A stretch of 64,000 nucleotides of DNA from an uncultured Sphingomonadaceae bacterium (GCA_937995515.1 CALKJZ010000018.1:50048-114047), one strand, 5' to 3'; positions 34,393 through 42,892 are shown, numbered from the stretch's first letter. Numbers and translations: made by a program. The notes: generated by a model from the sequence alone, not told the origin.

Positions 34393-34467
34393 GGGCCTGT
34401 AGCTCAACGGTAGAGCTGGCCGCTCATAACGGCTTGGTTGCGGGTTCGAATCCTGCCGGGCCCACCA
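34393..34467 (+). tRNA. tRNA with CAU anticodon (tRNA-Ile2 lysidine type or elongator tRNA-Met)
   Basis: GGGCCTG...CGGGCCC acceptor, D-arm GCTCAACGGTAGAGC, anticodon loop CTCATAA, GGTTCGAATCC T-arm, encoded CCA. Confidence 0.92.
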
Positions 34468-34504: not shown

Positions 34505-36496
34505 TCAGCCGCTACCGTCGCCCGGAGCGGGAGCCACCGGCGACCCGGGCGGGTCGGCGGCCTCCGCAAGGCCCAGATACTGGCGTGCGCCGCGCTGCCA
34601 CATCCGCGCGGTTCCCGGGTCAGGCGCTGGCGCGTCGATGGGGGGCGCGCGCTCCCGCTCCTCGGCGAATCGGGCAACCAGCGCCTCCGGGGTGATGGCC
34701 GCGAGGGCGGCAAAGCTGCCAAGGCCCGCGCGGATGAGCACCAGCGCCTGTGGCCCGGTCATGCCGCGGAGCGTGAGCAGCAGCGCCTGCTGCGCCCATT
34801 CGGCGAGCCGCCGCCGCTCCACGCCGAGGAAGGATTCGAGCCAAACCTGGGCGCGGGCGCGCCCCCCCACCTGCAGATATTCGCCGATCGCGTAGAGGCC
34901 AGCGCGCTCGAACCGCTCGAGAAGGTCGGCGGTCATGCCGGGAAGCACGGCGAGCGGCCGGTCGGGTGCGAACAGGTCGCGGGAAAAGACGCCGGCAAGC
35001 GTTTCCTTGGGCAGGGGCACGAGCTCGAGGCTGAGCCTCGAGATCGCCTCGGGCGCGATCGTCTCTCCCGGCTGCAGGAACCGGTACCCGATCCGCCCGA
35101 GCGGCGAGACCTCGACGGCAACGCCCGCCTCGAGCCGGATCTGGCGCACCGCGAAGTTGGAGGTGGCGTTGCGCATGGCCGCCATGCGCGCCTGCAGCTC
35201 ATCCAGGCTCTGCTGCAGTCCGCTCGCAAAATCCTCCGGTGCGGCGGGTCGTTCGCGCAGGGTCCTCAGCTCCTGCTCGAGCTTCAGGTTCCTCGCCTGC
35301 AGGTCTGTCACCTCGCGGCGGAGCTGGTCGACAATGGCCAGGAGGTTGCGCTTTTCCTCCTCTGACATCGCCGCCTCGCGGCCGCTTGCAATCGGTGTGA
35401 AGAGGCCAAGCACGCCGTCGACCGCCACCACCCGGTCCTGCCCGATCCGGGTGATCGTGCGGGCCTCGATGTGCGGCGCCGGGCGGGGGGCGGGGTCTCG
35501 TGCGGGTTCCACCCCGACCCGGATGGGCCTGCCGTGTGGCCGGCCCGTTTCAGCGTCCCACAGCCGCACGAACCGGTCACGGCCCAGGGTGGCGACGAGT
35601 CGGCCCTGCGGGTCGAAGCTGGCCGCAAGCGCGCCGCCTTCGTGCCTCAGCGTGGCCACCAGATGCGCGCCGTCGCCGGCGAAGATCGAGACCAGCCCGT
35701 CGGCCGTCAGCACAAGCCCACGCCCGGCTGCCGGCGCGGCCCGCACAGCCTGGACAGCCGCACCGGCGTGCAGCGGCTCGGCCCACGCCTCCTCGCCCGA
35801 GGGGAGTTTCCAGGCACGGATGGTGCCATCGCGGCTGCCGGTCAGCAGCAGCTTGCCGGCCGAGATGGCCGCAGTTGCGTGCTTCAGGGCAAGGCCGCGC
35901 GGCTGGTCCTGACCGCGCATGTCGAACAGCTGCACGAGCCCGTCGTCGCCCAGCGTCCACAGGCAGCCGGGCCCGAGGCCGAGATCGAGGACCGGTGCGC
36001 CATGCCGATATTCCGCGCCCAGCCTGCCGCGCCTCAGGTCGAACAGGCGCGCGACCCCGTCTGCTGCGGCGGTGATCACCAGCTCCCCGCGCGCTGCGGG
36101 CGGGGCGAGGATCCGCGTGACCGCCGCCTGGTGCGTCAGCGTCTCCCCTGCCACATCGCCCCTGTCGGCGGAAAAGGCCGAGACATGGTGGTCGGCATCT
36201 GCCACCAGCAGCAGCGTGCCATCCTCGGATGGCTCCGCGTGGGCGAGGCTCCGCCCGTGCGCGACCGTGGCGACCGGCTCGAGACCGGCGCTGTCGAACA
36301 GGTGCAGCCCGCCCGCCGAGGTGGCCGCAAACACCCGCTTGCCGTCGAGGAGGAGGCCGCAGGCAATCGCCCGCCCCTTGAGCGGTTGCGGACCGGCCAG
36401 CCGGGCGCCATCGGTGCCCCATAGCGAGAGCGTGTCGTCGTCGTGGGCGAGCAGCAAGCGCCGGCCTTCCTCGAGGAAGCTGCGGGGAGACAGCAC
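34505..36496 (-). CDS. WD40-repeat / coiled-coil protein with uncharacterized C-terminal helical domain
   Basis: Repeated WD40-like blades (ATLGRDRFVRLWDAETG, LLTGSRDGTIRAWKLPSGE), coiled coil EEKRNLLAIVDQLRREVTDLQARNLKLEQELRTLRE, C-terminal LLERFERAGLYAIGEYLQVGG HhH-like segment. Confidence 0.75.
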   Translation of the reverse strand: MLSPRSFLEEGRRLLLAHDDDTLSLWGTDGARLAGPQPLKGRAIACGLLLDGKRVFAATSAGGLHLFDSAGLEPVATVAHGRSLAHAEPSEDGTLLLVADADHHVSAFSADRGDVAGETLTHQAAVTRILAPPAARGELVITAAADGVARLFDLRRGRLGAEYRHGAPVLDLGLGPGCLWTLGDDGLVQLFDMRGQDQPRGLALKHATAAISAGKLLLTGSRDGTIRAWKLPSGEEAWAEPLHAGAAVQAVRAAPAAGRGLVLTADGLVSIFAGDGAHLVATLRHEGGALAASFDPQGRLVATLGRDRFVRLWDAETGRPHGRPIRVGVEPARDPAPRPAPHIEARTITRIGQDRVVAVDGVLGLFTPIASGREAAMSEEEKRNLLAIVDQLRREVTDLQARNLKLEQELRTLRERPAAPEDFASGLQQSLDELQARMAAMRNATSNFAVRQIRLEAGVAVEVSPLGRIGYRFLQPGETIAPEAISRLSLELVPLPKETLAGVFSRDLFAPDRPLAVLPGMTADLLERFERAGLYAIGEYLQVGGRARAQVWLESFLGVERRRLAEWAQQALLLTLRGMTGPQALVLIRAGLGSFAALAAITPEALVARFAEERERAPPIDAPAPDPGTARMWQRGARQYLGLAEAADPPGSPVAPAPGDGSG

Positions 36497-36505
36497 GGGC
36501 GCGGC

Positions 36506-36896
36506 TCAGCCCCGCTCGCCTCGCGCCGGCAGGGCAGGGGGGATGGCAGTGCCCGTCTCGCGCGGGGCGATCTGCAGCCGCACGCGGACCCCGGTCGAGG
36601 CCTCCTGGCCGAAGAGGGTGGCCGAGGTCGGCGTGAGCAGGCGCGCCTCGAGGAGGATCCGCCCGGCGCGTGCAGGCCCGATGCGGACCGCCCTGACCGC
36701 CATTTCGGCGAGGATCTCGGCCTTGGCCACCGTATACCACAGCGGCGAAAGCACGATCTCGCCCTCGCCCGTCTCCACGATGTCAGCAAGGCGCGCGCGC
36801 ATCGGTGTCGAGCGCGCGCTGGGCCTTGATGATCCCTTCAACCGTTCCCGCGAGCAAGGCGCCAAGCGGCGCCCGCTGCCCGATCGCCTCCGTCAC
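36506..36896 (-). pseudogene. Small uncharacterized protein gene, apparently frameshifted at a (GC)5 tract
   Basis: Frame 1 from GTG at 36896: VTEAIGQRAPLGALLAGTVEGIIKAQRALDTDAR|; continues after the tract in another frame as |ARLADIVETGEGEIVLSPLWYTVAKAEILAEMAVRAVRIG...; similarity to neighbouring paralogs spans the break. Confidence 0.5.
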
Positions 36897-36899
36897 GGG

Positions 36900-37841
36900 C
36901 TAGAGCGAAAGGACGGTCGTCGAGGAGACGAGGCCGAGGCGTACCGTCACCTTCACGTCGACCGGCGTCCGGTCCGGATCCGTTCCGCCGGCTGCGACGG
37001 GGAGCATGCGCGACACCGTGAGGAACACCCGGCCATTGCCGTCGGTCGTGGTGCCCGCGTTTGGGTCGGTGAAGCTCCACATCGCCCCCTCGACCTCGAT
37101 CGAGAGCGGCAGGCCTATGTTCGCATTGGGCGTGCCGTCGCGCCGATAGGCCATGATGGTGACGGCCTTGCTGACCGTGGTCATGCCGCCATCCACCTCA
37201 TCGGGCAGGTTTGCGCCCACGAGAATGCCAAGTGCGGGCGCATCGATGAGCTGGCGCGGCCTCGACACGCCAACATCGGCCTTGGGCTGCAGCAGCGCAT
37301 GCGCCCGGATGTTGCCGAAGCTCGACTCCCGCGACGTGTCCACATCGGTGCTGCGGGTGCCGATGGCGAGCGACTGTCGGCTGCGGCCGAAGCCGAGCCC
37401 GAACCCGCCGAAGATGCCGGTGTTCGAAAGGCTTGACGAGCCGGAGACCGAGGTCGCGCCGGTCTCGGTGCTGGCGACGAACTCGGTCGCGAAGAAGCGG
37501 CCTTGCAGACGCACCTGCGTCCACTCGTAGAACACCGGGTCGATGAAGTTGATGAGCGGCAGCCTGGAACTGATTGTCCGGCTGGCGTCGGTGGGATTGC
37601 CATTGTCGTCATAGGTGTTCACCTGCACCGCGATCACGTCGACGAGCGTCGCGGCGAGCGCGGACGTGGTGGCGGCTCCCACTTCGTTGAGCTGCCGCGA
37701 GGATTCGGCAACCGCAAGGCCGGTGGTCTCGAGGAGCTTGGCGAAGCTCATCCCGGCCTTTTTCACGGCCTCGTTCACATCGGCTGTGCCGGGCAGGTCG
37801 AAGGTCTCGATCTCCGGCATGATCGGCGGGTTGCTGGCCAT
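36900..37841 (-). CDS. Uncharacterized protein, paralog of the neighbouring gene (possibly DUF2589-like)
   Basis: MASNPPIMPEIETFDLPGTADVNEAVKKAGMSFAKLLETTGLAVAE...LPLINFIDPVFYEWTQVRLQGRFFATEF; shared layout with 37868..39112. Confidence 0.7.
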   Translation of the reverse strand: MASNPPIMPEIETFDLPGTADVNEAVKKAGMSFAKLLETTGLAVAESSRQLNEVGAATTSALAATLVDVIAVQVNTYDDNGNPTDASRTISSRLPLINFIDPVFYEWTQVRLQGRFFATEFVASTETGATSVSGSSSLSNTGIFGGFGLGFGRSRQSLAIGTRSTDVDTSRESSFGNIRAHALLQPKADVGVSRPRQLIDAPALGILVGANLPDEVDGGMTTVSKAVTIMAYRRDGTPNANIGLPLSIEVEGAMWSFTDPNAGTTTDGNGRVFLTVSRMLPVAAGGTDPDRTPVDVKVTVRLGLVSSTTVLSL

Positions 37842-37867
37842 GCTGTCTCTCCCCTTTTCCCCGTTTA

Positions 37868-39112
37868 TCAGAGGTCGACCGCGAAACGCCGGACGATGGC
37901 GCCCAGCCGGACGGTGACCGGGAATGAGGCGAAGGGCGCGGGGCGACCGTAGAACCGGCGCAGGCGGTAGACGACCTTGCCCCTTGCATTGGTGGCGCCG
38001 CCGGCCATGGCTTCCCGCAACAGGCCCGGTGCCTCGATCACGGGGTTGCGCCCGCCATTGGCCTCGCCATTGGCCTTGAGAATGGTGATGGTGACCTCCA
38101 CCTGCCGCTCGACCAGCGGCGCATTGGCGCGAGTGCCGTCCCGCACGTCCGTGGTCCGCCCCTGGGTCACAAAGATCTGCGGGCCGACCTCGACCGAGGC
38201 CGGCACGGGAAACTTGGTGGTGCGGCGCGGCGCCAGCAGCGAATCCAGTTGCACCTGGCCTTCCGCCCACTCGCTTTCCCGCTCGATAGTGGCGCGGACA
38301 GTGGAGAAGTCGGAGTTGAGCGACGTGCTGCCCACACCCACGAAGCCCAAATAAGCCCCGGCCGACCCCTGCCCGGCGCGCATCGAGAAGCTGTTGAAGC
38401 TCATGCCGGTCTTTTCGTTGAAGCCGGCCACAGTCAGGTCCATCGAAAGCGCCACATATTTCCATTCATGGACTGTCGGCGTGACGAAGTTGAGAACCGA
38501 GAGCTGCTGCTTGACGAGATCGGTGTCAGGGTTGGGGGCTTCGGGAAGGCCGGTGTCGTCATTGATGCGCTGGATGACGTCGGTCACCACGTCGATCTTG
38601 GTGTCGGCAAGGCGCCTTGCGGTGGCAACGACGCTGGCATCAAGCGCCCGCTGGGCTGCAGCGACACCTGTTCCCACCGACTTCAGGATCTCCCCGAAGG
38701 TGGGCGCGATGGAATCGAGCTTGCCTGCGACATCGGTTGCGACATCCATCGCCTCAAGGCCGCCGTCTGCCCCGCCGCCGCCCTCGGCGTCGGGAAGATC
38801 GACGCCGCCTGCCGTCACGGCCGCAGGCACCTGCGTGTCGGAGGCGCTCCCGATGGTGGCACCGCCCCTCTTTCCCGTCCGGGTTTCGGGCTTACGCTCA
38901 TCTGCGATGGTCGTCCGCTCCTGCCCGCCCTGTGTGTGTCCGCGCGGCGTGCCCGTTGCACCCCGGCCGAAAAGCCGGTGGACGCGGCCACGCGTTGCAG
39001 CGGCAAAGGTTTTCCGGCGACCCGTTGCGGATTGAGCGCCTGCCCGCGCGTGCGGCGTGGCGCTCTCCTTTTTGATGAACAAGAAGTTAACAGAGGGGCG
39101 CGGCACCGTCAA
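37868..39112 (-). CDS. Uncharacterized protein, first gene of the cassette; true start probably downstream of 39112
   Basis: AAAQRALDASVVATARRLADTKIDVVTDVIQ...VLNFVTPTVHEWKYVALSMDLTVAGFNEKTG; annotated N-terminus overlaps a TTGACG-N17-TAACTT promoter-like sequence. Confidence 0.65.
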   Translation of the reverse strand: MTVPRPSVNFLFIKKESATPHARAGAQSATGRRKTFAAATRGRVHRLFGRGATGTPRGHTQGGQERTTIADERKPETRTGKRGGATIGSASDTQVPAAVTAGGVDLPDAEGGGGADGGLEAMDVATDVAGKLDSIAPTFGEILKSVGTGVAAAQRALDASVVATARRLADTKIDVVTDVIQRINDDTGLPEAPNPDTDLVKQQLSVLNFVTPTVHEWKYVALSMDLTVAGFNEKTGMSFNSFSMRAGQGSAGAYLGFVGVGSTSLNSDFSTVRATIERESEWAEGQVQLDSLLAPRRTTKFPVPASVEVGPQIFVTQGRTTDVRDGTRANAPLVERQVEVTITILKANGEANGGRNPVIEAPGLLREAMAGGATNARGKVVYRLRRFYGRPAPFASFPVTVRLGAIVRRFAVDL

Positions 39113-39160: not shown

Positions 39161-42100
39161 TCAGCTGGAGGAGTGTCCGGGCGGCCCATACCCGCCGCCG
39201 CCGGGCGTCAGGATTTCCACTGCGTCGCCCGGCCCCACCTCGGCCAGCGCTGTTGGTCCGAACGGCTCGCGCGTGCCGTCGCTGCGGAGGATCCATCCCG
39301 CGCCGGGAAGGCCCGCGCCGCCGCCGGCAAGGCCCGGTGGCGCATGGCGGCGCCGGCCGGAAAGGAGCGCCACACGCATGGGGGCAAGGAAGCGCAGCCT
39401 CCGGATTGTGCCATCGCCGCCGCGCCACCTGCCAGCGCCACCCGAGCCGCGGCGGATGGCAAAGGCCTCCACCCTGACCGGATAGCCGAGCTCGAGCACT
39501 TCCGGGTCGGTCAGCCGGCTGTTGGTCATGTGGGATTGCACGGCGCTCGCCCCGTCAAAGCCGGGCCCGGCGCCCGTGCCGCCAGCGATCGTCTCGTAAT
39601 ACTGGTGGGTGCCGTCGCCGAAGGTGAGGTTGTTCATCGTGCCCTGCGCGGCGGCCATGGCGCCCAAGGCGATGAACAGCGCATCGGTCACGATCTGGCT
39701 TGTTTCCACATTGCCGGCGACGACGGCCGCAGGCGGCTGCGCGGCCAGCATCGAGCCTTCGGGGATGACGAGGTCCACCGGCCCAAGCGCGCCATCGTTG
39801 AGCGGGATGGGCGAATCGACGAGGCAGCGCAGCACGTAGAGCAGGGCCGCGCGGGTGACCGAGACGGGGGCGTTGAAATTGTCGGGTTGCAGCGGCGAGG
39901 TGCCGGTGAAATCGACCTTGAGGCGGCCGGCCTCGCGCGCAACCCGCACAGCGACCCTGATCCGGGCGCCATTGTCCATCGGGAGTTCGGCGGTTCCGTC
40001 CTCGAGGCGGGTGATGAGCCGGGCGACCGCTGCGGCGGCATTGGCCTGCACCCGCTGCATGGCGTGCCGCACGGTTTCGAGGCCTTCGGCGGCCACCAGC
40101 CTTGCAAGCGCATCCGCGCCGCGCGCGCAGGCCGCCACCTGGGCCACGAGGTCGGCGACGTTCTGGTCCGGGTTGCGCGCCGGAAAGGTGCCGGCGGCAA
40201 GGCAGGCGCGAAGCTCGGCCTCGCGCAGCCGCCCGCCCTCGACCAGCAGGAAATTGTCAAATAGCACACCCTCTTCGCCGATGTGCCGGCTCTGCGGCGG
40301 CATCGAGCCGGGGGTGATGCCGCCGACATCGGCATGGTGGCCGCGCGCGGCGACAAAGAAGGCCGGCTGCCGGCAGCCGGCAACGAAACAGGGCTGGATG
40401 ACGGTGATGTCGGGCAGGTGGGTGCCGCCGTTCCAGGGGGTGTTGAGAGCATAGACATCGCCCGGTTGCAGCCCGCGGCCGTCGCGGAGGCGCGCGGCGA
40501 CAACGGCCGCAACGCCGGCGCCCATCGAGCCCAGATGCACCGGAATGTGCGGCGCGTTTGCCACAAGCCGCCCCTCGGCATCGAACAGTGCACAGGAAAA
40601 ATCCAGCCGCTCCCTGATGTTGACCGACCGCGCGCTGGCTCTGAGCGCCTCGCCCATCTCAGTGGCAATCCCCATGAAGCGCGCGTGGTAGAGTTCGAGC
40701 CGCGCGGGATCATCGGCGGCTCCCACGCGCGCGAGCAGGCGGCCGGCGGCGCGGCGGAGCACGAGCGTCCGGTCGGCTGCGACTTCGGCTGTCCACCCGG
40801 GTGCCACGAGCGTGGTCGCACCATCCTCGGCGACAAGTGCCGGGCCCCGAACCCTGGCGCCCGGCGCGAGCGCTGCGCGGCTGTGCAGCTCCGCATCGGT
40901 GGTGCGGCCATTGAACCGCAAGGCGACCCGCTCTGGCGGGGCCGGCGCGCAGCCGGCCGCCGGCGGCGGATCGGCATCCTGCCGGCCGGCAGGCGTTCCG
41001 ATCGCCTCTGCCGAAAGCCGCTCGACGACGAGCGGCGCCTCGGGCGTTGCAAAGCCGAAGCGGGCGAGGTGGGCGTCGGCAAACGCGCGCGCGAGGCCTT
41101 CGGCCGGGCCGAACGGGAGCTCAAGCGTGGTGTCCGAGCCGCGGTAGCGCACGTGCGCCGTCACCTCCGTGCGGATGCGCCCGATCGGCGCCTGCTGGGC
41201 TTCGAGCGCCTGCCGGGCCTCGCTCGCAAGCGCCTCGGCTGCAGCGCCCAGTGCCGGATCGGATCCGGCAGCAAGCGGCAGCCCCAGCGTGCGCACGCGC
41301 GTGGCCACAAGGTCTGCCACGCCGATCCCGAGAGCCGAGAGGAACCCGGCCAGCGGATGCACGAGAATGGTCCGGATGCCGAGCGATTCGGCAAGCGCGC
41401 AGGCATGCTGGCCGCCCGCGCCGCCGAAGGCGACAAGGGCATGGTCTGCGGGATCGTGCCCGCGGGCAATCGAGATGTGGCGGATGGCCGCGGCCATCTG
41501 GCTGTTGGCGATTGCCAGCAGCCCCTCGGCAAGATCGAGCGGGTCTGGCCGGGGCTCGCCCTCGGCCGCGATGGCATCGGCAAGCCGCTCGAGCGCGGCA
41601 AGCGCGGCCGAAGGGTCGATCGGCTGGTTGCCGGCCGGGCCGAACAGGCGCGGAAACTGCTCCGGCCGCAGGCGGCCGAGCACGAGATTGCAGTCGGTCA
41701 CCGTGAGCGGCCCGCCCATTCGGTAGCATGCCGGGCCGGGCAGGGCGCCGGCCGACTGCGGGCCGACCAGCAGCCGGCCGGCCTCGAACCGGCAGATGGA
41801 GCCACCGCCGGCTGCCACTGTGTGGATGTCAAGCATCGGCGCCTGGAGGCGCACGCCGGCGATCTCCGTCTCGGCGCGGTGGGCCGGGCGGCCCTCCACC
41901 TGCGCCACATCGGTGGATGTCCCGCCCATGTCGAAGCCGATCAGCCTGCGATAGCCGAGCCTGCGGCCCACCTCGGCCATGCCGATGACCCCGCCCGCCG
42001 GGCCGGAGAGAAGCGCGTCGCGGCCGCGAAAGCCGGAGGCGGCGGCAAGCCCGCCATTCGACTGCATGAAGAGAATGGTCGCGTCGGGGAAGGCTTCGCA

Positions 42101-42763
42101 GACCCGGCGGACATAGGTGGCAAGCCCGGGCGAGAGATAGGCATCGGCAACCGTCGTGTCGCCGCGGGGCACCAGCCGGACAAGCGGGGAGACCTCGTGG
42201 CTTGCCGAAACCTGGGCAAACCCGGCCTCGCGCGCGAGCATGGCCAGCGCCTCCTCGTGCGCAGGGAAGCGCCAGCCGTGCATGAGGAGGATCGCCACCG
42301 CCTCGAAGCCGTCGGCCCGGGCTGCGGCGAGCGCGTCCCGGACCGGTCCGGCATCGAGCGGGGAGATGATCGTGCCATCGGCGCCGACCCGCTCGTCTAC
42401 CTCGACCACACGCTCGGGGAGCTGCCCGGGAAGGCGGATCTTTCGTGCAAAGATGTCGGGGCGCGCCTGGTGGCCGATCTGAAGCGCGTCGGCAAACCCG
42501 CGTGTGACAAGAAGCAGCGTGCGCGCGCCCTTGCGTTCGAGCAGCGCGTTGGTGGCAACGGTCGTGCCCATCTTCACGACCAGGGGGCCGCGATGCCCTG
42601 CCGCGAGGTGCCGGATCGCCCGCACGGCTGCATCCTCGGCCTCGCCCGGGCTGCGGCTCAGGAGCTTCAGCGTGCGGATGCCGCCATCGGCGCCGCGTGC
42701 GATGGCATCGGTGAAGGTGCCACCCCGGTCGATCCAGATTTCGAGCGGCAGCGGTTCGTCCAT
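39161..42763 (-). CDS. Fused hydantoinase A/B / 5-oxoprolinase
   Basis: [35 protein letters not shown]-terminal HyuB half ...[45 protein letters not shown]. Confidence 0.95.
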
Positions 42764-42892
42764 GCCGGCCTGCTGCCACGGCATGGGGTCCCGGTCACCC
42801 CCCTTGCAGGGCTGCGCTGGCGGTGCGCGCGCCGGCGCTGTATCGGGGCTTCGTGCCTCTCCTGCCCACCGCCCATTGCCGGCCCTTGGCGC

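What the first reader, a model, noticed from the sequence alone, without database searches (positions are those of the whole stretch)
34505..39112. Uncharacterized four-gene cassette: three related small proteins plus a WD40/coiled-coil protein
Seen: four consecutive minus-strand genes. 37868..39112, 36900..37841 and the frameshifted 36506..36896 share a layout: a helical segment (e.g. AAAQRALDASVVATARRLAD / IIKAQRALDTDARARLAD) followed by a hydrophobic/aromatic strand segment (VLNFVTPTVHEWKYVALSMDLTV / LPLINFIDPVFYEWTQVRLQGRF / IVLSPLWYTVAKAEILAEMAV). The fourth gene (34505..36496) has WD40 blades, a coiled coil and a segment SNFAVRQIRLEAGVAVEV that may be a further copy of the module. Inference: paralogous subunits assembling with a WD40 scaffold. 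The 36900 protein loosely resembles DUF2589, and such modules sit beside Trypco-type domains in proposed conflict systems. I cannot assign a function; this is the best candidate here for an undescribed system.
Basis: partly seen in the sequence, partly recalled or inferred. Interest (0 to 1): 0.78.

Follow-up and report, generated by a model that had tools for sequence, protein, structure and literature searches.

The report
Undescribed cross-phylum protease-linked gene cassette
Four neighbouring bacterial genes of unknown function turn out to be one copy of a rare gene set, found in three bacterial phyla and usually next to a subtilisin-type protease gene; it looks like an undescribed protein complex, possibly for defence, although this particular copy has lost the protease and may be damaged.

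Summary
Genes A (37868..~38908), B (36900..37841), C (36506..36896, one frame shift) and D (34505..36496) form a tight minus-strand operon. A and B are ancient paralogues (profile E 3e-31; each a 100/100 clade). C belongs to the same superfamily through a bridging family in Burkholderiaceae (AB-bridge 9e-14, C-bridge 8e-9, bridge-DUF2589 1e-5 to 5e-5; reversed controls >=0.1). D's strand segment matches Trypco2 only below threshold. D's WD40 half is a fusion specific to this copy; D's conserved core is coiled coil plus DUF4332.

A degenerate DNA motif found A-B-C-D, in the same order, in Planctomycetota, Actinomycetota and Proteobacteria. In three of those genomes an S8 subtilase (43-47% identical across phyla) sits directly upstream of A. 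None of 120 close relatives has the cassette; it lies beside a tRNA-Met at a synteny break. The window copy lacks the subtilase, has a frame shift in C and no canonical start where A's conserved N-terminus begins.

Best reading (0.4): adaptor/scaffold subunits of a cytosolic subtilase-centred complex, probably a conflict system; this copy is a derived or decaying variant. Nothing searched here describes it.

The parts
37868..38908 (-). Gene A (about 340 aa; start uncertain: the conserved N-terminus aligns with ATC at 38908; canonical in-frame candidates are GTG 38830, GTG 38818 and ATG 38749). Basic low-complexity N-tail, helix, DUF2589-like beta module (VLNFVTPTVHEWKYVALSMDL), C-terminal beta domain
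   Evidence: one-to-one relatives in L058, L068, L073, L077, L081
36900..37841 (-). Gene B (313 aa), paralogue of A: helix aa 33-64, beta hairpin aa 66-95, Ser/Gly-rich disordered aa 109-192, Ig-like beta-sandwich aa 196-312
36506..36896 (-). Gene C (about 130 aa), DUF2589-like module only (LGALLAGTVEGIIKAQRALD ... PLWYTVAKAEILAEMAV); interrupted by a frame shift in a GC-dinucleotide run near 36789-36800; open in relatives
34505..36496 (-). Gene D (663 aa): WD40 propeller fused to the conserved D core
35537..36496 (-). WD40 half of D (aa 1-320), peculiar to this copy; D proteins of relatives start after it
   Evidence: Pfam; relatives lack it; no WD40 match in the flanks of relatives
35162..35371 (-). 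Coiled coil of D (aa 376-445)
35003..35161 (-). Conserved strand segment of D (SNFAVRQIRLEAGVAVEV...LVPLPK, aa 446-498), Trypco2-like below threshold in relatives
34658..34942 (-). DUF4332 (helix-hairpin-helix-like) domain of D (aa 519-613)
   Evidence: 33.2 bits; 32.6 to 72.2 bits in relatives
34393..34467 (+). tRNA-Met (cat) 38 nt from the end of D; trxB-lysR-tRNA-Met is syntenic in four congeners and the synteny breaks here

Best explanation
Shown: A, B, C and D are one copy of a rare, scattered operon whose fuller form is S8 subtilase - A - B - C - D. A, B and C are built on one module (amphipathic helix, then a beta segment) that is distantly related to DUF2589. A and B add a C-terminal Ig-like beta-sandwich. 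D adds a coiled coil, a strand segment and a DUF4332 helix-hairpin-helix-like domain. Inferred: the module proteins are non-enzymatic adaptors that pair with each other and with D to form a cytosolic assembly which holds and regulates the subtilase. The Ig-like domains of A and B (in the window also the WD40 propeller on D) act as the sensing or binding surface, and the protease is the output, most likely in a conflict or defence response. In the window genome the protease is gone and the propeller has been added, so this copy either works with another output or is decaying (frame shift in C, no canonical start at A's conserved N-terminus).
For: Same gene order A-B-C-D in L058/L078 (Planctomycetaceae), L068/L080 (Intrasporangium), L072/L081 (Paucibacter) and L073/L082 (a proteobacterium), and A-B in L077. 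Flanks differ in every genome and there is one A-B pair per genome. An S8 subtilase lies directly upstream of A in three of the five loci with a readable upstream flank (Pfam E 2e-40 to 4e-32); the three are 43-47% identical. The pattern search found Asp, His and Ser motifs in two of them and the His motif in the third. One of them carries a C-terminal HHH_5, recalling DUF4332 of D. A and B each form a 100/100 clade, so the two subunits diverged before the copies in different phyla did. Module kinship: with reversed controls. Trypco2, a domain reported beside trypsin-like peptidases in proposed conflict systems (PMC7159879), matches at sub-threshold level in D of L068 and L072 and in the third gene of the bridging operons. 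The gene next to L058's cassette is the PADLOC candidate PDC-S65 (E 5e-127). The cassette abuts a tRNA at a synteny break.
Against: No protein contact, protease activity or phage phenotype was tested. The window and Paucibacter copies have no subtilase nearby, and no S8 rang in the window genome (without a positive control). No MoxR, vWA, STAND or other NTPase was recognised in the cassette. Only one locus (L058) abuts a known defence candidate. The bridging operons with the same module show no protease that I recognised within the stretches looked at, so the module need not serve proteases. The AF2 model is of low confidence over much of B outside aa 196-312.
Confidence: 0.4

Rival explanations
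1. Structural or display assembly: A, B and C are shell or filament subunits with Ig-like domains, D is a coiled-coil scaffold, and the subtilase is a maturation protease (as in capsid-like or surface assemblies).
For: Paralogous beta-rich subunits with Ser/Gly-rich loops and an Ig-like domain; protease beside structural genes is a common arrangement (general knowledge); the bridging operons also consist of module proteins plus a coiled-coil protein, without a recognised protease.
Against: No signal peptide or membrane segment was seen in A-D by eye (no predictor was run); no PHROGs match for A, B or C; Foldseek finds no match at E <= 0.001 in PDB or viral models.
Confidence: 0.25
2. Housekeeping regulated proteolysis: a cytosolic subtilase with its own adaptor/inhibitor set that processes cell proteins under stress.
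For: The S8 proteins have long N-terminal extensions before the catalytic domain and no evident signal peptide by eye; stable A/B paralogy.
Against: Very sporadic distribution: 0 of 120 relatives, 0 of 338 other genomes of the Intrasporangium phylum, no other complete A/B pair among 345 genomes of the Paucibacter family. This fits accessory rather than housekeeping genes.
Confidence: 0.2
3. The window copy is a decaying remnant: it lost its protease, C is frame-shifted, A lost its start codon, and it does nothing now. (This concerns the state of this copy and can be true beside any of the other readings.)
For: Frame shift in C against open relatives; ATC where relatives have ATG at A's conserved start; no S8 found in window or genome.
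Against: A, B and D are long open frames with coding-like composition and conserved cores; D carries a WD40 region; the lesions could be assembly errors in a draft genome, and A may start at GTG 38830/38818 or ATG 38749 with its module intact.
Confidence: 0.4
4. Part of the little-known DUF2589 world, where the module packages or delivers hydrolytic effectors; the subtilase would be the cargo rather than a regulated enzyme.
For: Bridge-to-DUF2589 profile match E 1e-5 to 5e-5 over up to 165 columns; DUF2589 pairs lie beside a GH19-like chitinase, an M57-like metalloprotease and a DUF2235-like hydrolase (neighbours named by eye).
Against: DUF2589 itself has no known function that I could find (one paper in the library mentions it); no secretion or injection genes next to the cassettes were recognised.
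Confidence: 0.15

Closest known systems
DUF2589 (PF11655)
   Same: N-terminal amphipathic helix followed by a P-containing turn and a strand of the type V-x-[IL]-x-[FM]-[DE]-[ML]-x-V; genes often in tandem pairs; distant profile match
   Different: No Pfam hit in A, B or C; A/B have an added Ig-like domain; the DUF2589 operons seen lack D and the subtilase
Trypco1/Trypco2-peptidase units of MoxR-vWA-VMAP ternary conflict systems (Kaur et al. 2020, PMC7159879)
   Same: Small non-enzymatic module beside a serine peptidase; propellers and coiled coils recur there as scaffolds; Trypco2 sub-threshold in D relatives
   Different: Subtilase instead of trypsin fold; no MoxR, vWA or VMAP in the cassette; Trypco2 not significant
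Bridging module operons of Burkholderiaceae (L097, L098, L101; found here, unnamed)
   Same: Module proteins plus a coiled-coil protein in one operon; strong kinship to A/B (9e-14) and C (8e-9)
   Different: No Ig-like domain on the modules, and no DUF4332, subtilase or WD40 recognised
PADLOC generic 'subtilase' and IetS
   Same: S8 peptidase in a candidate defence context
   Different: Hits are to the peptidase only and weak for IetS; no IetA-type partner was identified next to the cassettes
DUF4332 (PF14229)
   Same: Passes the Pfam cut-off in every complete D
   Different: Function unknown; here joined to a coiled coil, and in the window to WD40

Membership tests
DUF2589 (PF11655) | Pfam gathering score of 23 bits | tested here: not met
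   No PF11655 match for A, B, C or D; genome-wide none in G000
DUF2589 (PF11655) | Profile-level homology of the helix + strand module | tested here: met
   AB 5e-4, C 6e-4, bridge 1e-5 to 5e-5, pairwise hhalign; reversed controls 0.07-0.7. Distant kin, not a member
Trypco2 (PF19631) | Pfam score of 24.2 bits | tested here: not met
   13.6 and 14.2 bits in L068 and L072 D; not among the 25 families shown for window D
VMAP / MoxR-vWA ternary conflict system | MoxR, vWA and a third (VMAP, iSTAND or FtsH) component in the locus | tested here: not met
   None recognised in the cassettes. In Intrasporangium MoxR-like and vWA-like genes (named by eye) lie about 4 kb away behind other genes, a single case
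S8 subtilase - A - B - C - D cassette (this work) | A-B-C-D in order on one strand | tested here: met
   Window plus L058/L078, L068, L072/L081, L073
S8 subtilase - A - B - C - D cassette (this work) | Subtilase directly upstream of A | tested here: not met
   Hydantoinase-like gene instead; no S8 match in window or genome. Also none recognised within about 10 kb in Paucibacter
WD40 proteins | WD40 repeats over the Pfam cut-off | tested here: met
   PF00400, 49 bits against 27
Known anti-phage defence system | Match to a PADLOC system with its partner genes, or protection against phage | tested here: inconclusive
   No PADLOC match for A or B; D matches HEAT-ARM_XIII over its WD40 part and LmuB weakly over its coiled coil. 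Protection is not testable here

The most novel reading that the evidence does not exclude
Subtilase-A-B-C-D is an undescribed defence system: a cytosolic subtilisin-like protease controlled by paired DUF2589-like/Ig subunits and a coiled-coil/DUF4332 hub. The same module forms a large unrecognised superfamily of multi-subunit adaptor arrays (A/B/C, bridging operons, DUF2589), and the window copy has swapped the protease for a WD40 propeller.
Probability: 0.28. Interest if true: 0.78.

Novelty: new variant of a known kind. Interest (0 to 1): 0.6.

Why it matters
It joins several orphan families (A/B, C, DUF2589, and perhaps Trypco2) into one module class and ties part of it to a specific protease, with an operon conserved in three phyla. 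That makes a function testable: one can ask what A-D do to the subtilase and whether the set protects against phage. It would add an adaptor-controlled subtilase to the short list of protease-centred bacterial responses.

Tried and rejected
(1) Single-sequence look-ups with B (genome contigs; plasmids; phages) found nothing. A hand-made degenerate DNA pattern of the A/B motif NF[VI]xPxxxEW then found the relatives (5 of its 20 stretches of DNA were real, the rest chance or out of frame).

(2) Window proteins as plain DUF2589 or Trypco2 members: rejected, below cut-off.

(3) Phage or plasmid origin: no match to A, B or D in the collections searched with each and no PHROGs match to A, B or C.

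(4) Direct repeats marking integration between the tRNA-Met and the far side: none convincing.

(5) The small gene upstream of the bridging operons as a stand-alone subtilase propeptide: not supported (hhalign E 0.08).

(6) CHAT protein near the Paucibacter cassette as its effector: other genes lie between and it is on the opposite strand; not pursued.

(7) D as a further copy of the module: profile comparisons not significant.

(8) A first AF2 model of B with only two rows was poor. Foldseek hits of the better model are mostly generic Ig folds at E >= 0.01.

(9) Programmed frame shifting in C: unlikely, since relatives read C in one frame.

Full report
WHAT IS THERE. On the minus strand four genes follow each other with gaps of 26, 3 and 9 nt: A (37868..~38908), B (36900..37841), C (36506..36896) and D (34505..36496). 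Codon-position GC is coding-like in all. Canonical in-frame codons lie at 38830, 38818 and 38749, all before the conserved module. C has one frame shift in a GC-dinucleotide run; four relatives read C in a single frame.

RELATIVES. Ordinary searches found nothing: 120 relatives of the genome, the 85,488-species collection by peptide words, plasmids and phages, 394 other genomes of the class (one weak match to D's C-terminus only). In 398 others of the phylum two weak matches (E 0.004 and 0.006) were taken as chance. A degenerate DNA pattern built from the most strongly shared A/B stretch gave 20 hit stretches in the species collection. Five of them hold true relatives, with E 4e-57 or better to the A/B profile: a planctomycete (L058, both A and B), Intrasporangium flavum (L068), Paucibacter (L072), a soil proteobacterium (L073) and a betaproteobacterial fragment (L077). 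Because the pattern fixes codons, this is a lower bound. In L058/L078, L068, L072/L081 and L073 the order is A-B-C-D, one A-B pair per genome, with unrelated flanks. L058, L068 and L073 have an S8 subtilase immediately upstream of A, 43-47% identical to each other. Paucibacter and the window do not. D in the relatives starts where the window's WD40 half ends, so the propeller is a local fusion.

ONE MODULE. A and B are ancient paralogues: hhalign 2.9e-31, each a clade with 100/100 support. The ten-row A/B profile also rang in six Burkholderiaceae genomes, on the N-terminal module only, in small proteins (mostly tandem) without a Pfam family. This bridging family matches A/B at 9e-14 to 1e-13, C at 2e-7 to 8e-9 and DUF2589 at 1e-5 to 5e-5; the same profiles reversed give 0.1 or worse. 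Direct A/B-to-DUF2589 and C-to-DUF2589 comparisons give 5e-4 and 6e-4. These are pairwise E-values from some dozens of comparisons and shallow alignments, so the DUF2589 link is good but not proof. D shares gene position and a coiled coil with the last gene of the bridging operons but not significant sequence. Its strand segment resembles Trypco2 below threshold in two relatives.

STRUCTURE. AF2 with ten rows: helix 33-64, hairpin 66-95, disordered Ser/Gly loop, and a C-terminal beta-sandwich at pLDDT about 80-85 whose Foldseek neighbours are mostly Ig-type folds, none better than E 0.01.

SETTING. trxB-lysR-tRNA-Met is syntenic in four congeners; the cassette and the hydantoinase-like gene follow the tRNA only here, while G004 has its counterpart of that gene elsewhere. 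With the scattered distribution this points to horizontal acquisition. No att-like repeat was found.

MECHANISM. Shown: conserved operon, shared module, subtilase in three of five checkable loci. Inferred: A, B and C are adaptors and D a hub that control the subtilase. The parallel is the Trypco-peptidase pairing described in predicted conflict systems (PMC7159879; PMC10907252), but no MoxR, vWA or VMAP component was recognised in the cassette, so it is not filed as a member of that system. One relative abuts the defence candidate PDC-S65. The window copy lacks the subtilase and has two possible lesions, so it may be a derived form with WD40 or a remnant.

NOVELTY. Pfam, NCBIfam, PHROGs and PADLOC have no model for A or B, and the first three none for C (C was not run against PADLOC). 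The operon is undescribed as far as these libraries and the held papers go. I file it as a new variant of a known kind because its best reading, an adaptor-regulated peptidase, is an established theme; if the function proves unrelated to that theme the category would rise.

LIMITS. The survey of members is a lower bound. The search for an S8 in the window genome had no positive control. Gene calls in relatives were made with a simple script, and neighbours were named by eye unless a Pfam or PADLOC call is cited. The library holds only open-licence papers; DUF2589 and DUF4332 are each named in one of them.

Noticed in passing
L097 5441-8199 (+), L098 7310-10056 (-), L101 9588-11244 (+): Burkholderiaceae operons of DUF2589-like module proteins plus a coiled-coil protein (in L097 and L098 also an upstream protein of about 100 aa); no Pfam family for the modules.
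   Followed up: partly
L025 6842-8373, L026 6857-9124, L027 6843-8273, L029 6254-7886, L030 3515-5183: DUF2589 genes come as a long/short pair, often with a third gene of about 90 aa (LxDMRFVKRIVVGxxNP...), in some cases beside GH19-like, M57-like or DUF2235-like hydrolases (named by eye). About 2.5% of Pseudomonadota sampled carry them.
   Followed up: no
L058 5927-7843: SIR2-like gene divergent from the planctomycete cassette matches PADLOC candidate PDC-S65 (E 5e-127).
   Followed up: no
L080 39-5737: In Intrasporangium flavum a DUF5691-like, MoxR-like, DUF5682-like and vWA-like gene set (named by eye) lies about 4 kb beyond D of the cassette.
   Followed up: partly
L099 8837-11524: A 713-aa protein starting with the same module (LADTNVATFLSELGLGIARAQTALDENSL) sits in tandem with a 168-aa module protein.
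   Followed up: no
window 39161-42784: Hydantoinase/oxoprolinase-like gene upstream of A; its counterpart in G004 lies on a different contig from trxB-lysR, so it may have moved with or before the cassette.
   Followed up: partly
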